IMG/VR virus record: IMGVR_UViG_3300035698_034576 | Coordinates: 1-64,000 of that record | Length of the DNA stretch: 64,000 nt | From: a virus | Strand: one strand, 5' to 3' | Part shown: positions 4,617-48,244 of the stretch, in pieces | How the letters are laid out: each line of letters starts with the position of its first letter | How positions within the stretch are numbered: position 1 is the stretch's first letter | Notes under the pieces: generated by a model | The model's input: only the letters and a program-made list of their open reading frames with translations | What the model was told of the DNA's origin: nothing | Database searches by the model: none | Translations under genes and position numbers: made by a program

Positions 4617-6210
4617 AAGACTATCTGTTGATTTTTTGGAAGGAGAGACAACCTTTACTATACAAGGAGTAGAAGGATGTCTCTATATTATGGAACCTAA
4701 AAAAATACTCATAGGGGAAGATATGCGATTAATCTTTAATGAGAATGAGTTTTTATCTGACAAATGTTCCTTTTATGTTTTTGAGTGGGGAGGCAAATGG
4801 TTTTATGAGCCTAAAGATTACGAAAAAGTATCTTTTACTTTTTTGGAAAATATAGGAAAAGTTTCTTCTTTTTTAGATATAGAGGATTTTCCATTCTTAG
4901 GTTTGCACGGCATGTTTGAAATTTATAATGGCTCCGGATTGTATCAAGACTGGATTGATAAGGCTAAATTTTTAGGATATAAATCATTGGCTTTAGCTGA
5001 AAAAAATACTTTAGCGGGAGTTTTAGAATTTCAATCAGAATGCAACAAGAACAATATAAAAAGCATTATTGGGGAAGAGATATATGTTAAAGAAGGGAGC
5101 AAAACTTATTCAGTAAAGCTATATGTTAAAAATGAAAAAGGTTGGAAGATATTGCTCAGTATTCACAAAATAGTTTTAGTAGATAATCCGAGGCCATTTA
5201 TTGAGGAGCATGTTCTACTTAATCTATTGGATGAAAATATTTTTGTTGTGTTTGACAAAGGGGTTTTGCTTAATAGGAAAATTATTTTTGACTATTCTTT
5301 AAAAGCTGGAAGTGAAAATTTATTCTACCAGTGGGATACTGTCATTTACAAGAATGTCACTAGGGACAATGAGCTACTCCAAACGCAAAAAAATAATCTA
5401 GATTTCTTTAGAAAAGGAATGATAGAGTTTATTCTTATAAACGATGCCTACTATATTAACCAAGAGGATTATGAGATAAAGAAAAAACTTAATGAGATGA
5501 ATCCTAATAGTGAAATAGATGAAGTAGCAACAAACCAGTATTTGAAAGACCTTGATGATAATTACTTTTTAATGGAGAGTTTATTTCCAGAAGGAAAAGA
5601 TGATTTTGATAAGCTGTTCCCATCAATTATTTCTAATGCAAAAAAGATAGCGAAAGAATGTAACTTTCAATACAAAATATCTGAAGCTCGCTTACCCCAA
5701 TTTGAACAAAAGCATTTGCCTATTGAGCTTCAAAAAAAAGATAATAATTCACTTTTTTTATTTTTAATAGAGAAGGGAATTAAAGAGAAGCTTGTTGAAA
5801 GGGATGGGATTAAGGATTTGGATCCTTATTATGAAAGAATAGAGAAAGAAGCAAAAGTAATTCAAGAAGGTGGTTTTGTAGATTATTTTTTAGTTCTTTG
5901 GGATATTGTTAGGTATTCTTTAGCTAATGATATTTTGATAGGGCCAGGCAGGGGCAGCGCTGCTGGGAGCATCATATCACATTTGCTGAACATTACAAAC
6001 ATAGATCCTCTTAAGTATGATTTAATATTTGAGAGGTTTCTTAATGAGGGCAGAATAGGATATGTAGAAAAGGTAGAAATGATTATTGTAGAGACAGAAG
6101 ATGGATGTTTTGAATATAAAAATAATTCAAAAATAGCTATTCAAAGAGATGGAGTTAACAAAACAGTTATTTCCAGTGAATTAAAAGAGGGTGATTTGAT
6201 ACATGATTAG
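4588..6210 (+). CDS. dnaE: DNA polymerase III alpha subunit, N-terminal part
   Basis: N-terminal portion of a bacterial-type replicative polymerase (C-family). After about 100 non-conserved residues comes a degenerate PHP domain: the usual LHxHS is LHGMF and the TDH motif is AEK, so metal-binding residues are lost. The palm begins with GPGRGSAAGSII and DPLKYDLIFERFLNEGRIG, matching the conserved nucleotide-binding region. Right after GRIG the frame runs into an intein-like segment of about 49 residues and stops at TAG. The catalytic DxD motif is in the next ORF. ATG 4588 is preferred to TTG 4585. Activity requires the two parts to associate or be joined. Confidence 0.85.
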   Translation: MELKKWIKSKRLSVDFLEGETTFTIQGVEGCLYIMEPKKILIGEDMRLIFNENEFLSDKCSFYVFEWGGKWFYEPKDYEKVSFTFLENIGKVSSFLDIEDFPFLGLHGMFEIYNGSGLYQDWIDKAKFLGYKSLALAEKNTLAGVLEFQSECNKNNIKSIIGEEIYVKEGSKTYSVKLYVKNEKGWKILLSIHKIVLVDNPRPFIEEHVLLNLLDENIFVVFDKGVLLNRKIIFDYSLKAGSENLFYQWDTVIYKNVTRDNELLQTQKNNLDFFRKGMIEFILINDAYYINQEDYEIKKKLNEMNPNSEIDEVATNQYLKDLDDNYFLMESLFPEGKDDFDKLFPSIISNAKKIAKECNFQYKISEARLPQFEQKHLPIELQKKDNNSLFLFLIEKGIKEKLVERDGIKDLDPYYERIEKEAKVIQEGGFVDYFLVLWDIVRYSLANDILIGPGRGSAAGSIISHLLNITNIDPLKYDLIFERFLNEGRIGYVEKVEMIIVETEDGCFEYKNNSKIAIQRDGVNKTVISSELKEGDLIHD

Positions 6211-6271
6211 AGATGAACAAATAATTAATATCTAAAAGTTGTTATGAAAATAGTAAAAAAAATTAGAAAAG
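6061..6271 (+). other. Insertion splitting dnaE at the active site, intein-like
   Basis: DnaE homology ends at GRIG and resumes at GSLPTWANSL, leaving about 210 nt between. The first 150 nt are in frame and encode a segment (IIVETEDGCFEY … IQRDG … SSELKEGDLI) that resembles the middle, block-B-like part of Hint/intein domains. No N-terminal Cys or C-terminal His-Asn is seen, and in-frame TAG (6208) and TGA follow. A new ATG at 6244 opens a frame that would join the polymerase if the A8 run at 6255-6262 had one A fewer. It may be a degraded intein, half of a split intein or another intervening element. Confidence 0.5.
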
Positions 6272-8302
6272 AGATCAGGGAGTTTACCCACATGGGCGAA
6301 CTCCCTGACTAGCGATATTGACACAGATATTGCTGGAGAAAAAAGAGGCGAAATAAAGAGATATTTAGAAAGCACCTATGGAGAAGATTATGTCTGCTCA
6401 GTAGGAACTTATGGAACATTTCAATTATCAGCTGGAATTAAAGATTTACTCAGACAAAAAATTCCATTTAAGGCAATGAATAAAGTTGTAAAGACAGCAA
6501 AATTTGAAAGAAATGAACCTATTTCATCTTTATTTGAAAAAGCCCTTAAGAGCCCGGGTTTAAAATCTATTCTTAAAAATAATGTAAAGGAGATAAACCA
6601 GTTAAGAGTAATCCATAAAGGAATTAAAAATGCATCAATACATGCCGCGGCAATGATTATTGTCCCAAAAGAATATGGGGATATATTTTCACAGATGCCA
6701 GTTAAAAAAATGGATGATTTATTAATTTCAGAGTGGGAAGGAGAACCACTTGCTAATGCCGGGTTCTTAAAAGAAGATTTGCTAGGGACAAATCAACTTA
6801 ATAAGTTTGCCAATATTATAAGACTGATAAAAGAAAAAGGAGTAATTGACTTCGATTTTTATAATATCCCATTGGATGATTCAGAAGTTTATCACTTTTA
6901 TAAAAGAGGCTTTACAGCCGATAACTTTCATTTTGGATCAGACCTAATGACAAAGTACACTATTAAGATACAACCAGATAACATAAATGACCTGATAGCA
7001 ATTATGGCCTTGGTTAGGCCTGGGACATTAGAATCTGGAGCTGCAGACAAATATGGCATTTATAAAGACGATCCCTCTAAGGCAAAATTTATGCCCGGCC
7101 TAGAGGGTATAACCAGCAAAACATTTGGCTTTATAGTTTATCAAGAGCAAGTTATGAAGATTTGCCAGGAAATAGGTGGATTTACACTTTCCGAAGCAGA
7201 TTTAATACGTAAGGCTATTGGTAAAAAGAAAATGGATTTACTCCATTCTTTTAAAGAGAAGTTTATTAGTCAAGCTATTTTATTAGGACATGATAAGACG
7301 TTAGTAGAGGATATTTGGGGATTAATGGAGTTACATGGATCATACTCTTTCAATAAGTCCCATAGCGCCGCATACGCTATCACAGGGTACATTTGCAACT
7401 GGTTTAAGGTAAATTATCCTTTAGAATTCTGGATAACAACTTTGCAATATGCAGATAAAGATGATATTCCAAAATTTATATCAGAAATTAATCGTATCAA
7501 TGGTATTGTCAAAATGAAACATGCAGACATAAACTTATCCAAGGATATTTTTTATGCCTCAAAAGATAAGAAAAGTCTTTACTGGTCTTTAGATAGGATA
7601 AGAATGCTTGGAGTTGTTGCTTCAGAGGCTTTGAAAGAAGAAAAAGATTTGGGAGACTTTACATCATTTGATAATTTTTTACATAGGATTAATGAAAATG
7701 ATAGAAAAGTAAACAAAGCCGTAATTGAAAATCTTATATTTTCAGGAGCCTTTGATGAAGTAGAAAATATAGAAAAAATTCAGGATAGACTTTTGTTAAT
7801 TTATAAAATGGCAGAATCTTTAAAAATAAAAGAAGAAGACATAAGTATCAATAAAAAACCATTTCCTCTAAATAAAGAATATTGGTGGCAATTGCAACAA
7901 AGAAGAGTATCTGAATTTTCATACTTTGATTATAAAAAAATAATTGAAGAGGAAGCTCTTGATACTTTTTCTGAAATTGAGACCTATTATAAGAATGGAT
8001 TTGAAATTAAAAAAGGAGGCTTCGCTGAAGAAAAAGTTATAACTGCAGGGATAATAGTGGAAGTGAATCAAAAAGAAAGTACAAAGGCTGGTAATTTTGC
8101 TGTACTAAAGATAGATAATAATTTTGAAGTCTTTTCATTTATTATATGGAATGAGCTTTGGGATAAAGTCAAGAATGATTTAGCAGAGGGATTTTTAATA
8201 GCTTTTTCTGGAAAGGTTCAAAAAGAAAAATATTACGATTATATGAGTGTACAATCATCAAAAAATACAAAAATTAAAATTATTTATAATGGAAAAAATT
8301 AA
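6257..8302 (+). CDS. dnaE: DNA polymerase III alpha subunit, C-terminal part
   Basis: Contains the catalytic centre: SDIDTDI carries the metal-binding aspartates, followed by GEIKRYLESTYGEDYVCSVGTYGTFQ, the HAAA region, FVYQEQVM-like YQEQVMKICQE, and SFNKSHSAAYAITGYICNWFK, then a helical region and a C-terminal OB-like fold (KVITAGIIVEVN…). Conserved sequence is visible from about 6275, although the first in-frame ATG is 6476, which would remove the DxD motif. A likely real start is ATG 6244, one base out of frame across an A8 run. The stop overlaps the next gene. Confidence 0.8.
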   Translation, partial: KKLEKRSGSLPTWANSLTSDIDTDIAGEKRGEIKRYLESTYGEDYVCSVGTYGTFQLSAGIKDLLRQKIPFKAMNKVVKTAKFERNEPISSLFEKALKSPGLKSILKNNVKEINQLRVIHKGIKNASIHAAAMIIVPKEYGDIFSQMPVKKMDDLLISEWEGEPLANAGFLKEDLLGTNQLNKFANIIRLIKEKGVIDFDFYNIPLDDSEVYHFYKRGFTADNFHFGSDLMTKYTIKIQPDNINDLIAIMALVRPGTLESGAADKYGIYKDDPSKAKFMPGLEGITSKTFGFIVYQEQVMKICQEIGGFTLSEADLIRKAIGKKKMDLLHSFKEKFISQAILLGHDKTLVEDIWGLMELHGSYSFNKSHSAAYAITGYICNWFKVNYPLEFWITTLQYADKDDIPKFISEINRINGIVKMKHADINLSKDIFYASKDKKSLYWSLDRIRMLGVVASEALKEEKDLGDFTSFDNFLHRINENDRKVNKAVIENLIFSGAFDEVENIEKIQDRLLLIYKMAESLKIKEEDISINKKPFPLNKEYWWQLQQRRVSEFSYFDYKKIIEEEALDTFSEIETYYKNGFEIKKGGFAEEKVITAGIIVEVNQKESTKAGNFAVLKIDNNFEVFSFIIWNELWDKVKNDLAEGFLIAFSGKVQKEKYYDYMSVQSSKNTKIKIIYNGKN
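6275..6308 (+). repeat. Perfect 10-bp inverted repeat at the dnaE junction
   Basis: TCAGGGAGTT (6275-6284) and AACTCCCTGA (6299-6308) are perfect inverted repeats around a 14-nt loop that itself contains CCCA/TGGG. The hairpin lies exactly where polymerase homology resumes, within coding sequence. There is no T-run, so it is unlikely to be a terminator. Confidence 0.6.
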
Positions 8303-19693: not shown

Positions 19694-22600
19694 ATGATAT
19701 TTAAGACGAATTTGGCCAAAACGGTTTGGTCCTCAAAATACCGCTATGCTCAAGAATCTGAGCTGCAAACATTTAGAAGACTAGCCAAAGCAATGTCTTC
19801 AATTGAAGAAGACAAAGAGTATTGGGAAAAAAGATTTTTTGAAACAATGGTTAAATTTGTGGATAATAAACCACAAGGACTCAAGTGTACAACCGGTGGA
19901 AGAATCACAGCCAACTTAGGAACAAGATACAAAGGAGCTACTTTATTTAATTGTTACATTTCAGGAGAAGTCACAAATGCCCAAGTAAAATACAACAGAA
20001 CTCTTTCTAATGGAGAAGTGATAAAAGTCAGCTATAAAACCGACAAAGTAGGAGATGATATGAAAAACATCATGTTAACTCTTATGGAACAAACACTTAC
20101 TTTAAGTAAAGAGGGAGGTTGGGGTTCTAATTTCTCCTGGATTCGTCCAAGAGGAAGCCTTGTTGGAGGAGTCGGAGTTGAGCACCCTGGAGTTGTTAAG
20201 TTTCTTGAAATTTTTGATAAGACTTCAGAAGTAATTGTTGCTGGGAATAACGATGGCTACAAAGATCCTTTGGTGGACCGGTACAAAGAAATTCTTGATC
20301 TCAATGATAAAAGAGATAAGAAAAAGCAAAGTAGAAAGGGAGCCCAAATGGCAGTTCTAAATATTGACCATCCAGATATTCAAGAATTTATTACGGCCAA
20401 AGTAAAAGGGGGAAGATTGACAAAATTCAATTTGTCAGTAATGGTAACAGATGCCTTTCTTGATGCGGTTGAGAAGGATGAGCTCTTTGAATTAAAATTC
20501 AATGATGTTGTGTACAAAAAAGTTCTTGCGAGGGAATTGTATGACCTAATAATGAAGTCAACTTACAATAGAGCTGAGCCAGGAATTTTGTTCTATGACA
20601 ACATGCAAGGAAACAATCCATTGGCCTATCTGGGGGATGTAAAAGCTGTAAATCCATGTGTTGTTGGAGAAACTTTAGTCTTGACATCAATTGGTTGGGT
20701 AAAGTTTGAAAAGCTCTATTCCATGTTTATAGGTAAAAAGAAATTGCCAAAAATAATAACAAGAAACAAAGAAGGTAAACTTTTCAATTCTGATTTAAAG
20801 GAAGTCCTTTTGACAGAAAGGAACTCTCAATTGTTCAAAGTTTCTCTTGGCAATTCAGAGTTTTTGATTACAAATGGCGAGCATAAGTTTTATAAAAGTG
20901 ATTTTAGTGAAATTCAAGTTTCAGATATTTTTGAAAAAGTATTAAGAAACGTTTTCATTGTTTCTGGAGGAGAGGACGTTGAGATTTTAGATGTAGAAGA
21001 GTTGGGTTACAAAGAGGACGTTTATGACCTAACAGCAGAACCCAATTTTAATTTCTTTTCTCTTTTGAACAAAGAAGAACACATCAATGAGGAAAAAATA
21101 CTTTTAAATGATTCTGTAGAACTAGATTACTATTCCATTGTTAATACAAAAAATGGGCAAAGATTTGCGTATGATTTAAAGGAGGGAGAAGATAATTTTG
21201 ATAAAGCCCTTTTATTTAAAAAGTCTATTTTGAATGTTGACTGTGGAGAAATCCCGGGAAATACGGTATCATCAACAGTTTGCTTATTAGGATCGCTGAA
21301 TCTAACTCAATATGTAAATAAAAAAAGAGAGTTTAATTGGAAGGAATATGAAGAGGATATTGAGACGTTCACCAGGATGCTTGACAATATTAATGATTTG
21401 CACAAAAAAGATCTTCCAGCTTATTTATGGGCAGTTAAAAATGTAAGGCAATTTGGCATGGGTTTAAACGGATTTGGTTCTATGCTATATATGTTAGGTA
21501 TAGGATATAACTCCTCAGAAGCTGTTGAAATGGCTGAGAAGCTAAATAAAACAAAGCTTGAGATTGCTCTTAGGTCCTCAGCTTTACTAGCTAAAGAAAA
21601 AGGACCTGCTCCAGCATTTTCAGAAAAGTATTTTGAAACAAACTATTGGAATGTTTTCTTGAAAGGTAAGGTTTCTAAGAAAACCATAGATTTGATTAAA
21701 AAAAATGGCCTAAGAAACTTAAAGGTAACAACAAATCCCCCTTTAGGAAATTGTGTTTCTATTGATACAAAAGTTGTTACCGATAATGGAGTAAAAAAAC
21801 TAAGAGAAATATTCAATGAAAATAATGTAAATAGAGAAATTGAAGAAAATTGGAGCAAGTGCATATCTGAAACGAAAGTCTTGACTTTAGATGGTTGGAA
21901 AAAAATCAAAAATTTATATGTCAATAAAAAAACAGAGGGATTAAAAATAAAAACAGAAAAGAAAAATGCCATTTCTTGCACCAAAGCTCATAAACTTTTA
22001 GTTAAGATAAATGAGAAAGAGGCTGTTTGGAAAGAGGCTGGAGATATAAAAGAAGGAGACACTATTTTAGTTGTAAAAAGAGATGTTTTGAACAGAGACA
22101 ACAGAATAAAAGACTTACTTTTAAAAGGTGAAAAGTTTAGCTATAGCAAATTTACAATAGACGTTAAGTCTGTTTCCGACTTAAATTGCAAATTTTGTGG
22201 TAAACCCTTAAAGATTGGAAATCTTTCTAGAAAAAATAAATCATTTTTTAAAGTTAAAGGATGCCCATGTAAAGGGAAAAATAACAAGCTCCAGTTTCAA
22301 TCAGTGTTTGGAGAAAATAGCGAATTATATTTTCAATCTTATAGCCATAAAGGAAGACTAACCTTAGAATGGCATATTGAGAAATATGGAGAAAAAGAGG
22401 GAAAAAGAAGATATAAAAACCTTCTTAAAAAGAGTGACAGAAGCTTGGAGGGTTTTATAGGAAACTATGGAGTTAAAGACGGAGAAAAAAAATACAATCA
22501 ATTTCTAGACAAGCTCAGAGGAGACTCTCTAAAGAAGTTCATAAGGGCTCATGGGGAAGAGGTTGGAATAGAAAGACACAAGATGTTTATAGAAAAGGCC

Positions 22601-23248
22601 AAGAAAGGCTATTTTTCATTAGAATATTGGATTGGAGTTTGCGGTGGGGATGAAGCGTTGGCTAAGGAAAAGTACAAGAGCTTCCAAACAAAAAATCTTG
22701 TTTGGTACACAGAAAAATATGGTTCAGAAAAAGGATTAATAAAATACAAAAAAGTTTGTTCAAAACACAGAAGGCACAATAGACCATTGTGGTATATAGA
22801 CAATTATGGTGAAAAAGATGGTATTCGCTTATTGGATTTATTCTGCAAAAGAAGAGTTTTTGGAACATCTAAAGTAGCTTCTGATTTTTTTGAAAGACTG
22901 GAAAAGGAGATTGGTAAGAGTTGTGAGTATATGCCAAAATCACCTGAAAAACATATAACCTCTATTGAAAAAAATAGGGCTTATTTCATTGACTTTTATT
23001 GTCCTCATTATAACAAGGGGATCGAATTCAATGGGACTTTTTGGCATTTCTCAATAGAAGATGAGAAAAAAGAAGAGCCTAATCCTGTTACAAAATTAAC
23101 TCCATCTCAGACTAAAGAGATAGATGAAAATAAAGCAGAAACAATTGAAAAAACAATTGAACTTCTTACAATATGGGAAAAAGAACTAAAGGATGAAAGT
23201 AAATTAATGGAAAAGTGTATAAAATTTTTAAAAAATGGAAATAATTAA
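19694..23248 (+). CDS. nrdJ: Class II ribonucleotide reductase, N-terminal part, with intein 1 and N-part of intein 2
   Basis: Makes deoxyribonucleotides for phage replication. Class II (adenosylcobalamin-dependent) is inferred from the single-chain layout, the NPCGE-type active site and the C-terminal cysteine cluster in the next ORF; no NrdB-like gene is seen. Extein features: LFNCYIS, GGWGSNFSWIRPRG, NLSVMVTDAF, AEPGILFYDN, then VNP interrupted by intein 1 directly before the active-site Cys (CGEIPG), VCLLGSLNLTQYV, and NPPLGN interrupted by intein 2. The ORF ends inside intein 2, in its endonuclease region, and overlaps the next ORF by 14 nt. Confidence 0.85.
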   Translation: MIFKTNLAKTVWSSKYRYAQESELQTFRRLAKAMSSIEEDKEYWEKRFFETMVKFVDNKPQGLKCTTGGRITANLGTRYKGATLFNCYISGEVTNAQVKYNRTLSNGEVIKVSYKTDKVGDDMKNIMLTLMEQTLTLSKEGGWGSNFSWIRPRGSLVGGVGVEHPGVVKFLEIFDKTSEVIVAGNNDGYKDPLVDRYKEILDLNDKRDKKKQSRKGAQMAVLNIDHPDIQEFITAKVKGGRLTKFNLSVMVTDAFLDAVEKDELFELKFNDVVYKKVLARELYDLIMKSTYNRAEPGILFYDNMQGNNPLAYLGDVKAVNPCVVGETLVLTSIGWVKFEKLYSMFIGKKKLPKIITRNKEGKLFNSDLKEVLLTERNSQLFKVSLGNSEFLITNGEHKFYKSDFSEIQVSDIFEKVLRNVFIVSGGEDVEILDVEELGYKEDVYDLTAEPNFNFFSLLNKEEHINEEKILLNDSVELDYYSIVNTKNGQRFAYDLKEGEDNFDKALLFKKSILNVDCGEIPGNTVSSTVCLLGSLNLTQYVNKKREFNWKEYEEDIETFTRMLDNINDLHKKDLPAYLWAVKNVRQFGMGLNGFGSMLYMLGIGYNSSEAVEMAEKLNKTKLEIALRSSALLAKEKGPAPAFSEKYFETNYWNVFLKGKVSKKTIDLIKKNGLRNLKVTTNPPLGNCVSIDTKVVTDNGVKKLREIFNENNVNREIEENWSKCISETKVLTLDGWKKIKNLYVNKKTEGLKIKTEKKNAISCTKAHKLLVKINEKEAVWKEAGDIKEGDTILVVKRDVLNRDNRIKDLLLKGEKFSYSKFTIDVKSVSDLNCKFCGKPLKIGNLSRKNKSFFKVKGCPCKGKNNKLQFQSVFGENSELYFQSYSHKGRLTLEWHIEKYGEKEGKRRYKNLLKKSDRSLEGFIGNYGVKDGEKKYNQFLDKLRGDSLKKFIRAHGEEVGIERHKMFIEKAKKGYFSLEYWIGVCGGDEALAKEKYKSFQTKNLVWYTEKYGSEKGLIKYKKVCSKHRRHNRPLWYIDNYGEKDGIRLLDLFCKRRVFGTSKVASDFFERLEKEIGKSCEYMPKSPEKHITSIEKNRAYFIDFYCPHYNKGIEFNGTFWHFSIEDEKKEEPNPVTKLTPSQTKEIDENKAETIEKTIELLTIWEKELKDESKLMEKCIKFLKNGNN
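20657..21241 (+). mobile_element. RNR intein 1 (195 aa), directly before the catalytic cysteine
   Basis: Starts with Cys after VNP (CVVGETLVLTSIGWVKFEKL) and ends before CGEIPG, so +1 is the thiyl-radical cysteine of RNR. A block-B-like ITNGEHKFYKS and a block-F-like DVYDLTAEPNFNFF are visible. The C-terminal residues are NVD rather than the usual HN, and about 60 residues with no match to known blocks separate block F from the splice point. There is room for at most a remnant endonuclease. Splicing must occur for any RNR activity. Confidence 0.75.
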
Positions 23249-23375
23249 TATTGAAAATTTAGATTTGCAGGAGGAAGTTGTTGTCTCTATTTCAAAAACA
23301 TCTTTGAAAACGTTTGATATTGAAGTAGAAGATAATCATCACTATATTTTAGCAAATGGAATAATTTCGCATAAC
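21752..23375 (+). mobile_element. RNR intein 2 with Vsr-like endonuclease, split between two ORFs
   Basis: Begins CVSIDTKV after NPPLGN and ends IISHN before Ser. The N-terminal ORF carries splicing block B (ISCTKAHKLLV), a four-cysteine zinc-binding motif (CKFCGKPL…CPC), about six repeats of a roughly 30-residue unit containing KYGEKEG-like cores, then FIDFYCPHYNKGIEFNGTFWH, typical of Vsr-like endonucleases. The frame then stops at 23246-23248. The 47-residue C-terminal splicing part begins at ATG 23235 in another frame (block F: TFDIEVEDNHHYILANG). Either a natural split intein or a one-base break in A6. Confidence 0.8.
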
Positions 23376-24458
23376 TCTTCTGTTCTATGTGATAATATAT
23401 CAAATGGACTAGAACCTGTTTTCATGCACAATTATAATCGCACCCACATTACAGAAGGCTGGCCAAAAGATTATACAGAAGAGGATTTGATGAAAAAATT
23501 AACAAAGAAAAAAGTTGGGGGGACTGATGTTTGGGAAGGAGAAATAAACGGAGAAATTTATTATTATGAGCCCCATAACCGAGGCCTCTGTAAAATTGAA
23601 ACGGTTTATGATTATGGCTATAATTGGGTAAGAGAAAACTATCCTCAAGACCTGAAAGAGAACAAGCCTTATTTAATTACAACAAACGACCTTTCTGTCA
23701 CTGACCACTTAAACGTTCAAGAAGCCTTTCAAAAGTACATTGACCAAGCTGTTAGTAAAACTATCAATATTCCCAAAAATTATCCTTTTGACGAATTCAA
23801 AAAGATTTATATTGATGCTCACAAAAGAGGTTTGTTAGGTCTCACAACCTATAGAGACGGAACAATGGAATCAGTTCTCTCTAAGATAGAGGAAAGTGAG
23901 GATTTGAAAAAGGACAGATCCGTAATTAAAAACGTAAAACTCCCAAACAAATTTGTCAATGGACCTTGTGAAGTTATAAAAAGAGAGAAGCAAAAGTTTT
24001 ACATTCACTTTTCATATCTTATAGAGGACACAAAGAGAAGCTTTCCAATAGCTATTTGGATACAAAGCAATCAAAAACCTCAAGGAGAAGCTAAATATGT
24101 AAACAGAGCTCTGAAGTCTATTGAGATTTTGCTTACTGACTTTGGAGTTCCGGAAGAAGAGGTTGAAAAACTAGAGATGAAATACAAAGAGGACTATCCT
24201 TACAACAAATTAGCAAAAGCCATTTCAATGAGTTTGAGGCACAATTTGCCAATCAAAAATATAGTTCATTCTTTAGAAAACCTTGAGGGAGACACAATAT
24301 CAAGTCTATTAACAGCAATAAGAAAATTCTTATCAACTCACATTGCAGATGGTGAATCTGTATTAGATGGACTTTGTGACTCTTGCGGAGGAACTAACGT
24401 TGTTTATGAAGGAGGTTGTTCAACTTGCAAAGATTGTGGCAGCACTCAATGCGGGTAG
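23235..24458 (+). CDS. nrdJ: Class II ribonucleotide reductase, C-terminal part, preceded by intein 2 C-part
   Basis: The first 47 residues are the C-terminal splicing half of intein 2. The extein resumes at SSVLCDNISNGLEPVF and continues through HNYNRTHITEGWPKDY, DHLNVQEAFQKYIDQAVSKTINIP and HKRGLLGLTTYRDG, all matching reductase C-lobes. The C-terminus has the cysteine cluster CDSCGG … GCSTCKDCGSTQCG used for active-site re-reduction in class II enzymes. The start ATG lies in AAAAAATGG, overlapping the upstream stop by 14 nt, which would allow coupled translation and trans-splicing. Confidence 0.85.
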   Translation: MEIINIENLDLQEEVVVSISKTSLKTFDIEVEDNHHYILANGIISHNSSVLCDNISNGLEPVFMHNYNRTHITEGWPKDYTEEDLMKKLTKKKVGGTDVWEGEINGEIYYYEPHNRGLCKIETVYDYGYNWVRENYPQDLKENKPYLITTNDLSVTDHLNVQEAFQKYIDQAVSKTINIPKNYPFDEFKKIYIDAHKRGLLGLTTYRDGTMESVLSKIEESEDLKKDRSVIKNVKLPNKFVNGPCEVIKREKQKFYIHFSYLIEDTKRSFPIAIWIQSNQKPQGEAKYVNRALKSIEILLTDFGVPEEEVEKLEMKYKEDYPYNKLAKAISMSLRHNLPIKNIVHSLENLEGDTISSLLTAIRKFLSTHIADGESVLDGLCDSCGGTNVVYEGGCSTCKDCGSTQCG

Positions 24459-44277: not shown

Positions 44278-45666
44278 ATGGAATTTGAAAGAATAGACAA
44301 ACAGGAAACTGCCCTTTTTAATCTAGAAAAATCTAGAAAAACAGGCTATTATAAAGATAATCGCGAAAATCGTCTAAAAAATAGAGTAGGTCAGAAATAT
44401 ACCATAGATGTAACTGACGAAAAAGATCTTGGAAAAGTACAACGCCAACTAGAAGAAGCCCGTAACAGAAAAGATATTTACAATCCTTCAGAAGAAAATG
44501 ACCAGGAGATAGAGAGGCAATTTTTGGAAAATTTCGAAAAATTCGCTAAAGAAGATGCTGAGTGGCTTAAAGAAAATCCAATGGGGTCTCGCACAAGAGA
44601 TTGGAGAAGGAACGATGAAATTATCAGAGCAAATCTTTTATTAGAAGAGGCAGAAGCTTCTAAACAAATTTCTTTAGAAACTGACCAAGATAAAGAGGCT
44701 TTTATACATGCTTCTCAGGTTACAAGAGCAGAGAGCCAATTTTTTATGGGAGAACTTATTGATAAAATTAAGCTCAATCCTGAAAACTCAACTTTCAAGG
44801 AAGAATTGGTTTGGCTAACAACTAAAGATCATGAGAGAGTCAGAAGATTCAATATCTTAGCTAGGGAAAACAATATAACTCAATTAGAACCCTTTAGATT
44901 TGTAAAAGAGACCAATAAACCTGTGCTTGTCTGGGATTCAGAAGAGAAGTATTCTTCATTAACAAATAAAGGACCAAAAGTTAATAAAGAGAATCTTAAA
45001 AGATCAACATATAAGGATTCTTTAGGGGCTTTTGAAGCGTGGGAAACCGAAGGCAGTAAATTAAGTTTTCCTTGGGAGTCTGCCAAAATAGGAGGTTCTG
45101 TTTCATATAATGTTGATGAAGCTAGTGAAGCTATTAGAGATTATCTGAGTAGGCTCCCTATTTTAGAGGTTGATCCTTGGGATGTTGAAGTGTTTTTAAA
45201 ATCTCCTCATGATTTTATAAAAGAAAAAGGCCATTTTAATCTAATAGATAGTGAAGACAAAATTTTTGGAAGTATAATTATATCCACAAAAGAAAAAGAT
45301 TTTTTATTCCTCAGAAAAATTAACGATCACTATGTAAAGGACAGTTCTAAGAAAAAGACTAGCATAGGTAAGTCTTATGTTGTAAAATTATTACCTATAC
45401 TTAATCCTATTTCAGGACTTAATTATAAGCATCCAATATCAGAGTTGCCTTTAATTGTTGTTCCAGAAGTGGCTACAATATCTGAAAGTAGATTGGATAG
45501 AGCTAAAAGAAAAATTAGAGAATATGATTTAGATGAATTGTCTAGGCTTATTGAGGAAGAGGAAGCTTTGCCAAAATATAAGCAAGATAAAGATGATCTT
45601 GACCTTTTATATTTTAAAAGGACTAAATATTTTGAATTTAAAAGGGAAATCGAAAAATATACATAA
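44278..45666 (+). CDS. Large tagged virion-module protein (462 aa)
   Basis: The tag is at residues 12-41 (LFNLEKSRKTGYYKDN, ENRLKNRVGQKY). The body is long and charged, with helical parts (DQEIERQFLENFEKFAKEDAEWLKENP) and a beta-rich C-terminal half (KEKDFLFLRKINDHYVKD). No known domain. At this size and location it may be an internal head protein or an ejected effector. Ends 1 nt before the AAA ATPase. Confidence 0.6.
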   Translation: MEFERIDKQETALFNLEKSRKTGYYKDNRENRLKNRVGQKYTIDVTDEKDLGKVQRQLEEARNRKDIYNPSEENDQEIERQFLENFEKFAKEDAEWLKENPMGSRTRDWRRNDEIIRANLLLEEAEASKQISLETDQDKEAFIHASQVTRAESQFFMGELIDKIKLNPENSTFKEELVWLTTKDHERVRRFNILARENNITQLEPFRFVKETNKPVLVWDSEEKYSSLTNKGPKVNKENLKRSTYKDSLGAFEAWETEGSKLSFPWESAKIGGSVSYNVDEASEAIRDYLSRLPILEVDPWDVEVFLKSPHDFIKEKGHFNLIDSEDKIFGSIIISTKEKDFLFLRKINDHYVKDSSKKKTSIGKSYVVKLLPILNPISGLNYKHPISELPLIVVPEVATISESRLDRAKRKIREYDLDELSRLIEEEEALPKYKQDKDDLDLLYFKRTKYFEFKREIEKYT

Positions 45667-45667
45667 A

Positions 45668-48244
45668 ATGAAAACTGATTTAATTAGTAAGAGCAAAGGA
45701 CTGGGAATAGCTAGATCATTTGAAAATGATATTGAGAAGGCTAAAGCTTTCCCTCCAGGGACAATTAAAAATTATAATGGCAAGAGATATATTAAAGTAT
45801 CAGATGCAAAAGGTTTGGAATGGAAAGACCAATGGAAAATGATCCATAGTAAAAAACAAATAGAGGAAACTCTTGAAGAGTTTGGTAATGTTCCTGGACT
45901 CTCTGGTAAACTTTCTGGATTGCCTGCTGATGCTGAATCAAAACCAAGCGCTCCCTCTGTTGAAAAAAAGGAAACCTCAGGAAATGATTCAAGTAATGAT
46001 CCAGTTATAGGCACTTTAAATAAGGTATCTACATCAAAAGATCATTCTCCTTTGACGAGACTTGAAAATATGTACAGCTATGGGTTGGAAGATCCAATGA
46101 CTTTAGCTACATTTTCTGGAGCCCATTATTCTGAAGTTCAGAAATTTTTAGCAAATAAAAAAGAAACTGAAATTAAATCTGCTTTTACAGAAGTTGAAAA
46201 AGAAAGGATTGCCGCAGCGACAAGAAAGAAAAGACTTTCTCTTTATGCGGAACTAGCTGGCATTTCTGTTCATGATAGATGGAGAACGTATGATACCATT
46301 CTTGAAAACACTATGGAGGGCAAGTTCAAATCTATGATTGCATTTGGATCAGGTGGAGTAGGAAAAGCTCAGCCTTTGTACAGTAAGGTATTAACTCCTG
46401 AAGGCTTTGTAAAAATGGGGGAATTAAAAGTTGGAGATGAAGTTGTAACTCCTAAAGGGAGTTTATCTAAAATCTCAGATATTTATCCACAAGGCAAACG
46501 GGCTGTTTATGAATTAACCATGGAGGATAACACTAAAATTAGATCTGATGTGGAACATTTATGGAAAGTTCTAGACACAGAGGATGATTTTAGTGAAAAA
46601 GTATTATCCCTGGAAGACATAGTGGAAAAAGGCTTAAAAACTGAAAATGGCTGGAGATTTGGAATTCCATTTATTGATAAGCCTTTTGGAGCTCCAAAAA
46701 ATATTGATTTGCCGGTTAACCCTTGGCTTATTGGATGGCTACTTGGAAATGGTTGCTTTTCAAACAATCTTTCCTTTGATATTAATCCATTAGATAAAGA
46801 ATTCCTTTTAAGCAAAATTGAAGAGTATCTTCCAAAAAATTTAAAGATCTCTAAGAAAATAAGCCCCACCAAGTTCAGTATCATTGGGAATGATAAATTA
46901 GATGAAAAAGAATTAGAGCTAGCAATCAATCAGCTGTCCCTGCCTGAAAGAGAAAACTGTTCTGCATTTATTCCTGGGGTATACAAAAGATCTTCTGTTG
47001 AACAGAAGCTCCATATTATACAGGGCTTAATGGATTCAGCTGGATATATAGATCAAGCTGGAATGCTAAAATTTTCCTCTCCATATAAGATATTGGCTCA
47101 GGATTTTTATGATTTAGTTAAATCATTTGGAAGAATGGCTTATATTGAAGAAAAGACCGTATCATTTTTTGGAACTGATTCAAGAGAAAATTGGATAGTA
47201 TCTTTTGATTTAGGAGAAGGGTACCTTCCTTATTCCTCCCCGGCAAGATCTAATGAATACCGTCCTAAGGATAAAGAAGGATCCATGCCAATAGTGGATA
47301 TTTCGTTTATAGCCATAGAAGACACCCAATGTATTTCAATAGAAGATGCAGATAAAATGTATATCACAGATGGTTACATTCAAACCCATAATACATGGAA
47401 CATGCAATTAGCAACTAAGAAATTTGTTGTTAATAGGGAAACAGGAATTATTATGAGAAAAGAGGATTTCAAGAAAACTTTTGGTCCAGATGCTACTTGG
47501 GATGATTCTCACATTAAAACAGTTCCAAAAAATGATTACCGGGAACTGCGCCAGTTTGATCCTACAAAAAAGTTTAGTGCTTCAGATTACGAATATGTAG
47601 TTATAGGGGGTTCAATATCCCCAGTTATGACATATTCAAGTATCTATCAACATAACAAGAAGATTATTGTTTTTGATGATATTGATAAGATCCTTAAGAA
47701 TAGAGAGGGGCTTGATGTTCTTAAAGGGGCTTTGGATGGAGAAATAAAAGATATTTCATGGGGTACTTCAACAACTCCTAAGGATATGCTAGGAGTTGAT
47801 GTTCCTAAAACCTTTAAGTTTGAAGGCAGGGCTATATTTATAACCAACCTAACCAATGAACAACTTAAGACTCCAGAGCTACAACCTATCACTCAGTCTA
47901 GAGCTGAGCCTGTGGATTTAACAATGACAAAAGAGGAAACTATTCAAAAGCTACAGACTTTGGTTAAGACTATGGAAGTTAAAGATGCGGCTGGAGAGGT
48001 TATTGATGCTTCCCCTGAGGACAAGCAACAGGCCTTAGACTATATGATTGAAATGAAGGATATAATTCATGCAGGATACTTCAATGCTAGAAAGCTAGGA
48101 GCGCTAACAAAACTTCTTAAGATTTCCAAAAATGATACCGAACTGTTTAGAAAAATGGCTTCATCTTCTCTACAGGTCCCTACAGGCGAGCAAATACCTG
48201 AGGATTGGATTTTCAATTATGACGATGATGAAGGAATAGTTTAA
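45668..48244 (+). CDS. AAA-type ATPase interrupted by a class 3 intein
   Basis: ATG 45668 is chosen; the in-frame upstream start at 45533 lies inside the previous gene. Residues 1-70 carry the second tag type (AKAFPPGTIKNYNGKRYIKV). The ATPase has Walker A AFGSGGVGK/T, split by the intein, and Walker B KIIVFDDIDKIL, followed by TSTTPKDMLGVDVP and GRAIFITNLT with IT(S/T)LT sensor-like sequence. It may help assembly, packaging or chaperone virion proteins. The extein is 516 aa. Confidence 0.7.
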   Translation: MKTDLISKSKGLGIARSFENDIEKAKAFPPGTIKNYNGKRYIKVSDAKGLEWKDQWKMIHSKKQIEETLEEFGNVPGLSGKLSGLPADAESKPSAPSVEKKETSGNDSSNDPVIGTLNKVSTSKDHSPLTRLENMYSYGLEDPMTLATFSGAHYSEVQKFLANKKETEIKSAFTEVEKERIAAATRKKRLSLYAELAGISVHDRWRTYDTILENTMEGKFKSMIAFGSGGVGKAQPLYSKVLTPEGFVKMGELKVGDEVVTPKGSLSKISDIYPQGKRAVYELTMEDNTKIRSDVEHLWKVLDTEDDFSEKVLSLEDIVEKGLKTENGWRFGIPFIDKPFGAPKNIDLPVNPWLIGWLLGNGCFSNNLSFDINPLDKEFLLSKIEEYLPKNLKISKKISPTKFSIIGNDKLDEKELELAINQLSLPERENCSAFIPGVYKRSSVEQKLHIIQGLMDSAGYIDQAGMLKFSSPYKILAQDFYDLVKSFGRMAYIEEKTVSFFGTDSRENWIVSFDLGEGYLPYSSPARSNEYRPKDKEGSMPIVDISFIAIEDTQCISIEDADKMYITDGYIQTHNTWNMQLATKKFVVNRETGIIMRKEDFKKTFGPDATWDDSHIKTVPKNDYRELRQFDPTKKFSASDYEYVVIGGSISPVMTYSSIYQHNKKIIVFDDIDKILKNREGLDVLKGALDGEIKDISWGTSTTPKDMLGVDVPKTFKFEGRAIFITNLTNEQLKTPELQPITQSRAEPVDLTMTKEETIQKLQTLVKTMEVKDAAGEVIDASPEDKQQALDYMIEMKDIIHAGYFNARKLGALTKLLKISKNDTELFRKMASSSLQVPTGEQIPEDWIFNYDDDEGIV
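46367..47392 (+). mobile_element. Class 3 intein with inactive LAGLIDADG endonuclease (342 aa)
   Basis: Starts with Ala (AQPLYSKVLTPEGFVKMGELKVGDEV) directly after GK of Walker A and ends THN before Thr. The WCT residues of class 3 inteins are present: W in EHLWKV, C in TQCISIED, T in QTHN. The two LAGLIDADG helices read LIGWLLGNGCF and IIQGLMDSAGYI; the catalytic acidic residues are Asn and Ala, so the homing endonuclease is probably dead while splicing is retained. Confidence 0.85.

What the first reader, a model, noticed from the sequence alone, without database searches (positions are those of the whole stretch)
21752..24458. Possible naturally split intein in ribonucleotide reductase
Intein 2 is distributed over two ORFs: the N-part (with Vsr-like endonuclease) ends at 23248 and the C-part (47 aa) starts at ATG 23235, overlapping by 14 nt in AAAAAATGG. 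Both halves retain splice residues (Cys1, HN, Ser+1). Trans-splicing would be needed to make RNR. The alternative is that one A too many in an A6 run breaks a continuous intein.
Basis: partly seen in the sequence, partly recalled or inferred. Interest (0 to 1): 0.72.

Follow-up and report, generated by a model that had tools for sequence, protein, structure and literature searches.

The report
Naturally split intein in phage reductase
In this phage the gene for the enzyme that makes DNA building blocks is cut in two by a self-splicing protein element that is itself split, so the two protein halves probably have to find and join each other; the arrangement is a variant of a known kind in which the DNA-cutting passenger gene has become fused to the first half.

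Summary
Observation confirmed: ORF 19694-23248 (class II reductase N-part, intein 1, IntN2, Vsr/EDxHD-type endonuclease) and ORF 23235-24458 (47-aa IntC, rest of reductase) overlap by 14 nt; Cys1, HN and Ser+1 are present. The split is very probably natural, not an A6 sequencing error. The same intein is split at the same reductase site in other phage contigs (L002, L003, L004, L114, L187, L051) and a 462-kb phage record (L280); IntC starts at the same place while its frame relation to the upstream ORF differs (+1, +2, or in frame behind a stop). Of 29 other distinct endonuclease/IntC junctions 24 overlap (1-44 nt) and none is continuous. The IntC start fits this phage's A-rich start context; IntC is under strong purifying selection in a relative pair. 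The layout is nearly the published 'fractured gene' class (Dassa 2009). Different here: the endonuclease is fused in frame to IntN (0 of 29 others) and has Thr at a nearly invariant Asp; L051, L018 and L019 keep only endonuclease scars. Trans-splicing is inferred, not shown. Intein 1 of the same protein has an odd C-end (VD|C), and no reads were available.

The parts
19694..20656 (+). class II ribonucleotide reductase, N-extein, first part
   Evidence: PF02867 / TIGR02504 matches
20657..21241 (+). intein 1 (195 aa) at the NP|C active-site position; Cys1, block-B-like LITNGEH, block F DVYDLT, about 55-aa extra stretch before an atypical C-end ..ILNVD|C
   Evidence: TIGR01445 E=8e-6; alignment A6; C-ends of inteins at this site
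21242..21751 (+). reductase extein between intein 1 and intein 2, ends PPLGN
   Evidence: PF02867 to position 393; intein-free relatives
21752..22078 (+). IntN of intein 2 (109 aa, Cys1, TxxH block B)
   Evidence: TIGR01445 E=7.7e-10; local HMM E=3e-39; alignment A4
22079..22354 (+). linker fused in frame to IntN, with a zinc-finger-like CKFC..CPC segment; stand-alone homologues have a stop and a new start here
   Evidence: comparison with L002, L003, L004, L114, L280
22355..23248 (+). EDxHD/Vsr-type homing endonuclease (helical repeats then nuclease domain), fused to IntN; Thr instead of Asp in NG[D]xWH; own stop TAA 23246-23248
   Evidence: alignment A5, PHROG 3339 homing endonuclease and 22677, Foldseek 3r3p/1cw0, 76 of 78 motif matches have Asp
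23235..23248 (+). 14-nt overlap of the endonuclease stop and the IntC start, in AAAAAATGG
   Evidence: 24 of 29 other distinct loci overlap too
23235..23375 (+). IntC of intein 2 (47 aa, MEIINIENLDL..HN), own ATG
   Evidence: TIGR01443 E=7e-10; alignments A3/A7; start-context score
23376..24458 (+). reductase C-extein, starts at Ser+1, ends with a CxxC-type tail
   Evidence: PF02867 392-523, TIGR02504

Best explanation
Intein 2 of this tailed phage's class II ribonucleotide reductase is a naturally split intein. ORF1 gives reductase-N + IntN with a fused Vsr-type homing endonuclease; ORF2 gives the 47-aa IntC + reductase-C, started at ATG 23235 by coupled initiation at an A-rich start that overlaps the endonuclease stop codon. 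IntN and IntC would associate (IntN net +6, IntC net -7), use Cys1, Asn47 and Ser+1 in class 1 trans-splicing, and ligate PPLGN to SSVLCDN, leaving an IntN-endonuclease:IntC by-product. The endonuclease once spread the element into empty reductase alleles and may now be decaying. Shown here: anatomy, site, conservation of the split and of the IntC start, overlap as a class rule. Inferred: trans-splicing, coupled initiation, endonuclease activity or decay.
For: Same site, split, in L002, L003, L004, L114, L187 and L051 and in the 462-kb phage record L280. The IntC start aligns while frame relations differ (+1, +2, in frame after TAA); L002/L003 have GAGGAG/AAGGAG before the ATG. 24 of 29 other distinct endonuclease-IntC junctions overlap by 1-44 nt, with frames +2:14, +1:13, 0:2, and none is continuous. 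The window endonuclease ends where stand-alone homologues end (KCIKFLKN..). IntC dN/dS is 0.014 at dS 1.29 between L002 and L003. The IntC ATG outscores 95% of 1277 other ATGs in a start-context matrix trained on 49 ORFs of this window and lies above the median true start; 3 of 49 starts have SD-like motifs. It is the only reductase in the record and the exteins are complete. L051, L018 and L019 have endonuclease scars but intact IntN and IntC.
Against: No reads or near-identical second assembly were found, so an A5/A6 error cannot be excluded directly. The pattern MEIINIEN biased which relatives were found first (L114, L051, L280 and L187 were found independently of it). Intein 1 in the same ORF has a degenerate-looking C-end (ILNVD|C, about 55 extra residues), so the reductase might not be made at all. 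Splicing was not tested.
Confidence: 0.88

Rival explanations
1. A single-base error (or true recent indel) in the A6 run breaks an otherwise continuous large intein that would splice in cis.
For: The break lies in a homopolymer, and a one-base difference would join the frames.
Against: The break coincides exactly with the start codon used by split relatives and with the natural end of the endonuclease; none of 29 other endonuclease-IntC junctions is continuous; the start context fits this phage. A6 is a short homopolymer.
Confidence: 0.05
2. Both products are joined by recoding: +1 ribosomal frameshifting or transcript slippage at the A6 run makes a continuous precursor part of the time.
For: A-rich slippery-looking sequence with the needed frame relation.
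Against: Relatives would need other shifts (+2), stop readthrough (L002/L003) or crossing of a 46-nt gap (L051) for the same product, so no conserved recoding site exists; A6 is short.
Confidence: 0.03
3. The locus is a decaying pseudogene: the endonuclease has lost a conserved Asp, intein 1 has an atypical end, and the DNA polymerase gene of the same phage is interrupted too.
For: Thr in NG[D]xWH; intein 1 end ILNVD; polymerase interruption.
Against: Both intein 2 halves keep all splice residues, extein halves are complete with no stops, reading frames of over 1100 and 400 aa are open; Asp-terminal inteins can splice (PMC4031507).
Confidence: 0.07

Closest known systems
Fractured genes (Dassa et al. 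2009, NAR 37:2560; not held, known through citations in PMC3653736 and PMC11766414 and from my own knowledge)
   Same: Phage DNA-metabolism gene (including nrdJ) broken by a split intein with an endonuclease of the Vsr-related family between the halves.
   Different: There the endonuclease is a free-standing gene; here it is one open frame with IntN, and only the IntC side is separate.
Naturally split inteins NrdJ-1, gp41-1, gp41-8, IMPDH-1 from metagenomes
   Same: Canonical split between blocks B and F, short IntC with its own Met, phage-like origin.
   Different: Different insertion site from NrdJ-1 (from my own knowledge that one lies at the NPC motif); sequence similarity to gp41-1 is marginal (6qaz E=0.28); IntN net basic and IntC acidic here.
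I-Bth0305I / EDxHD homing endonucleases and Vsr
   Same: Nuclease-domain fold match (3r3p prob 0.99, TM 0.64 by target; 1cw0 prob 0.99).
   Different: Carries helical KYG..G..KY repeats, sits inside an intein, and has Thr at a conserved Asp of this subfamily.
Aeromonas phage Aeh1 nrdA split by mobE
   Same: Phage reductase gene broken in two with an endonuclease gene at the break (PMC3653736).
   Different: No protein ligation by an intein is needed there according to that paper; the split nrdA is functional as two genes.

Membership tests
Naturally split intein | N and C splicing blocks with nucleophile Cys1, terminal HN and Cys/Ser/Thr+1 | tested here: met
Naturally split intein | halves encoded by separate ORFs between blocks B and F, conserved in relatives | tested here: met
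Naturally split intein | protein trans-splicing observed | not testable with these tools
   needs expression
Fractured gene (Dassa class) | conserved enzyme gene broken in two by a split intein | tested here: met
   PF02867 7-393 and 392-523 in two ORFs
Fractured gene (Dassa class) | free-standing endonuclease gene between the halves | tested here: not met
   endonuclease is in one ORF with IntN (19694-23248); relatives L002, L004, L114, L280 meet it
EDxHD / Vsr-like homing endonuclease | Vsr-like nuclease fold | tested here: met
   Foldseek 3r3p and 1cw0 prob 0.99, E about 0.2, model pLDDT 71; profile hit to Vsr weak, E 0.4
EDxHD / Vsr-like homing endonuclease | conserved E..NGDxWH motif | tested here: not met
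   window has EFNGTFWH; Asp in 76 of 78 motif matches; E, W and H are kept
EDxHD / Vsr-like homing endonuclease | cuts intein-less target allele | not testable with these tools
   needs an assay

The most novel reading that the evidence does not exclude
The window catches an intermediate between a large continuous intein and a fractured gene: the endonuclease is still (or again) fused to IntN while IntC is already an independent gene. Together with stand-alone (L004, L114, L280), scar (L051, L018, L019) and empty (L034-L050, L052, L053) alleles at one reductase site it would let the life cycle of gene fracture be reconstructed step by step.
Probability: 0.35. Interest if true: 0.55.

Novelty: new variant of a known kind. 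Interest (0 to 1): 0.42.

Why it matters
How continuous inteins become split genes is an open evolutionary question. One reductase site here shows empty, endonuclease-free split, three-gene split and endonuclease-fused split forms, and shows that the IntC start sits at the endonuclease's 3' end, which would explain why endonuclease loss leaves a scar instead of a clean gap. It also adds several new natural split-intein pairs, some with IntN basic and IntC acidic, to the pool used in protein engineering.

Tried and rejected
Near-identical second assembly to check the A6 run: none among IMG/VR hits. Direction of change (fusion ancestral or derived): the intein tree has weak support (31-70 at the deep nodes), left open. 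Sequence search of the endonuclease against solved structures: only weak Vsr hits, so a model and Foldseek were used. Recoding at A6: rejected because relatives have other frame relations. Alternative code: L002/L003 need TGA read as sense; the window does not need it for the junction. Group I intron in the polymerase interruption: no Rfam match. Genome-contig scan for IntC gave only distant inteins. Dassa 2009 full text is not held, so whether it already describes an IntN-endonuclease fusion could not be checked.

Full report
What is there. The window is part of an 83,151-bp viral record with portal, large terminase-like ATPase and major head genes, so a tailed phage. ORF1 19694-23248 holds the N-part of a class II (NrdJ-type) ribonucleotide reductase, intein 1 at NP|C, IntN of intein 2 and a Vsr-like endonuclease in one open frame; ORF2 23235-24458 holds a 47-aa IntC and the rest of the reductase. 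The ORFs overlap by 14 nt (23235-23248) in AAAAAATGG. Cys1, HN and Ser+1 are present. PF02867 is matched at 7-393 by ORF1 and 392-523 by ORF2, and there is no other copy in the record. Intein-free reductases from other phages read NPPLGN|SSVICDNVSNGI straight across this site, which fixes the insertion point.

Is the split real? Relatives with an intein at the same site were collected by different queries: the IntC/extein protein, the extein alignment, the IntN alignment, a phage-record search and the endonuclease scan. In L004 the gene is in three pieces: IntN stops, a stand-alone endonuclease follows, and IntC starts at MEIINIENLDL overlapping the endonuclease stop by 10 nt. In L114 the overlap is ATGA. 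In L002 and L003, which read TGA as a sense codon, the endonuclease ends in TAA directly before the same ATG, with GAGGAG or AAGGAG upstream. In L280, a 462-kb phage record, the overlap is 13 nt. In L051 there is no endonuclease, but the 46-nt gap still reads INKQDIVNKCVDFLKGI-stop, the endonuclease C-terminus, before an SD and the IntC ATG. L018/L019 have a GTG start and a similar remnant (read by eye). The frame of IntC relative to the upstream ORF is +1 (window), +2 (L004, L114, L280) or 0 behind a stop (L002, L003). An indel or a conserved recoding signal does not predict this; independent starts do.

Class-wide check. I scanned viral contigs with the endonuclease alignment, built local profiles for IntN, IntC and endonuclease and tabulated the junctions. 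After removing near-duplicates, 29 loci other than the window have an endonuclease directly followed by an IntC: 24 overlap by 1-44 nt, one abuts, four have gaps of 1-22 nt, and none is in one frame with IntC. The window's 14 nt is in the middle of that distribution. In none of the others is IntN in the same ORF as the endonuclease (endonuclease ORFs there are at most 1.7 kb). That fusion is the one feature that sets the window apart.

Translation start and selection. A start-context matrix trained on 49 other ORFs of this window shows A-rich, SD-less starts (3 of 49 with SD-like motifs); ATG 23235 scores above the median of real starts and above 95% of 1277 other ATGs. Between L002 and L003 IntC has dN/dS 0.014 (dS 1.29) and IntN 0.13, as low as or lower than the reductase. 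IntN is net basic and IntC net acidic in the window and in L002-L004 and L114, a possible pairing aid; the polarity is opposite to that of DnaE split inteins as I remember them.

The endonuclease. A model (pLDDT 71) matches the I-Bth0305I catalytic domain 3r3p and Vsr 1cw0 with probability 0.99, at E about 0.2. PHROG 3339 is annotated homing endonuclease. The motif E-F/Y-N-G-D-x-W-H has Asp in 76 of 78 matches; the window has Thr (the scan pattern allowed D or T, so other letters are under-counted). Since Vsr itself has Cys there, loss of activity is plausible but not certain. With the scars in L051, L018 and L019, this suggests repeated endonuclease loss while the split intein is kept.

Most likely mechanism. 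Two chains are made, IntN and IntC associate, and class 1 trans-splicing ligates reductase-N to reductase-C, releasing IntN-endonuclease bound to IntC. Anatomy and conservation are shown; association, splicing and coupled initiation are inferred.

Place among known systems. It works like, and apart from one feature is laid out like, the fractured genes of Dassa et al. 2009, which PMC3653736 cites for 7 nrdA and 2 nrdJ cases. The free-standing endonuclease of that class was tested and is not met here. I therefore call it a new variant of a known kind. Direction of change is unresolved.

Caveats. Intein 1 must also splice for an active reductase. It keeps Cys1 and block F but has about 55 extra residues before the C-end and ends VD|C. 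Asp ends can work (PMC4031507). Other phage inteins at this same NP|C site end in Gly, Arg or Gln. No reads were available.

Noticed in passing
window 5767-6787, gap 6058-6310: The only DNA polymerase III alpha gene is interrupted by about 253 nt just before its catalytic DIDTD motif: intein-like codons without Cys1, stops in all frames and a strong hairpin (z -5.2), no Rfam intron. How the polymerase is made is unclear; L201 has an HNH-endonuclease-like ORF at the same place.
   Followed up: partly
window 20657-21241; L050, L054, L094, L051, L111, L112: Inteins at the reductase NP|C site end in Asp (window), Gly (L050/L054/L094), Arg (L051) or Gln (L111/L112) instead of Asn. Gly and Arg ends cannot cyclise in the usual way; possible unusual or inactive splicing.
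   Followed up: partly
window 45533-48244: Large ATPase (terminase-like and helicase-loader-like matches) with a continuous intein in its Walker A motif (GSGGVGK|AQPLYSK..IQTHN|TWN).
   Followed up: no
L002 1-1716 and L003 1229-3197: Reductases of TGA-recoded phages carry a further split intein with its own endonuclease before CWHPDIEEF, so one reductase is fractured twice.
   Followed up: no
L050/L054 versus L051: Related reductases, L050 and L051 from the same metagenome, with empty site and with split intein: a natural before/after pair.
   Followed up: partly
L017 2502-5513: Class I reductase whose gene is broken after PVES|C.., with a second ORF carrying an intein ending HN|SSVISNSTNGLEPP; arrangement not resolved.
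   Followed up: no
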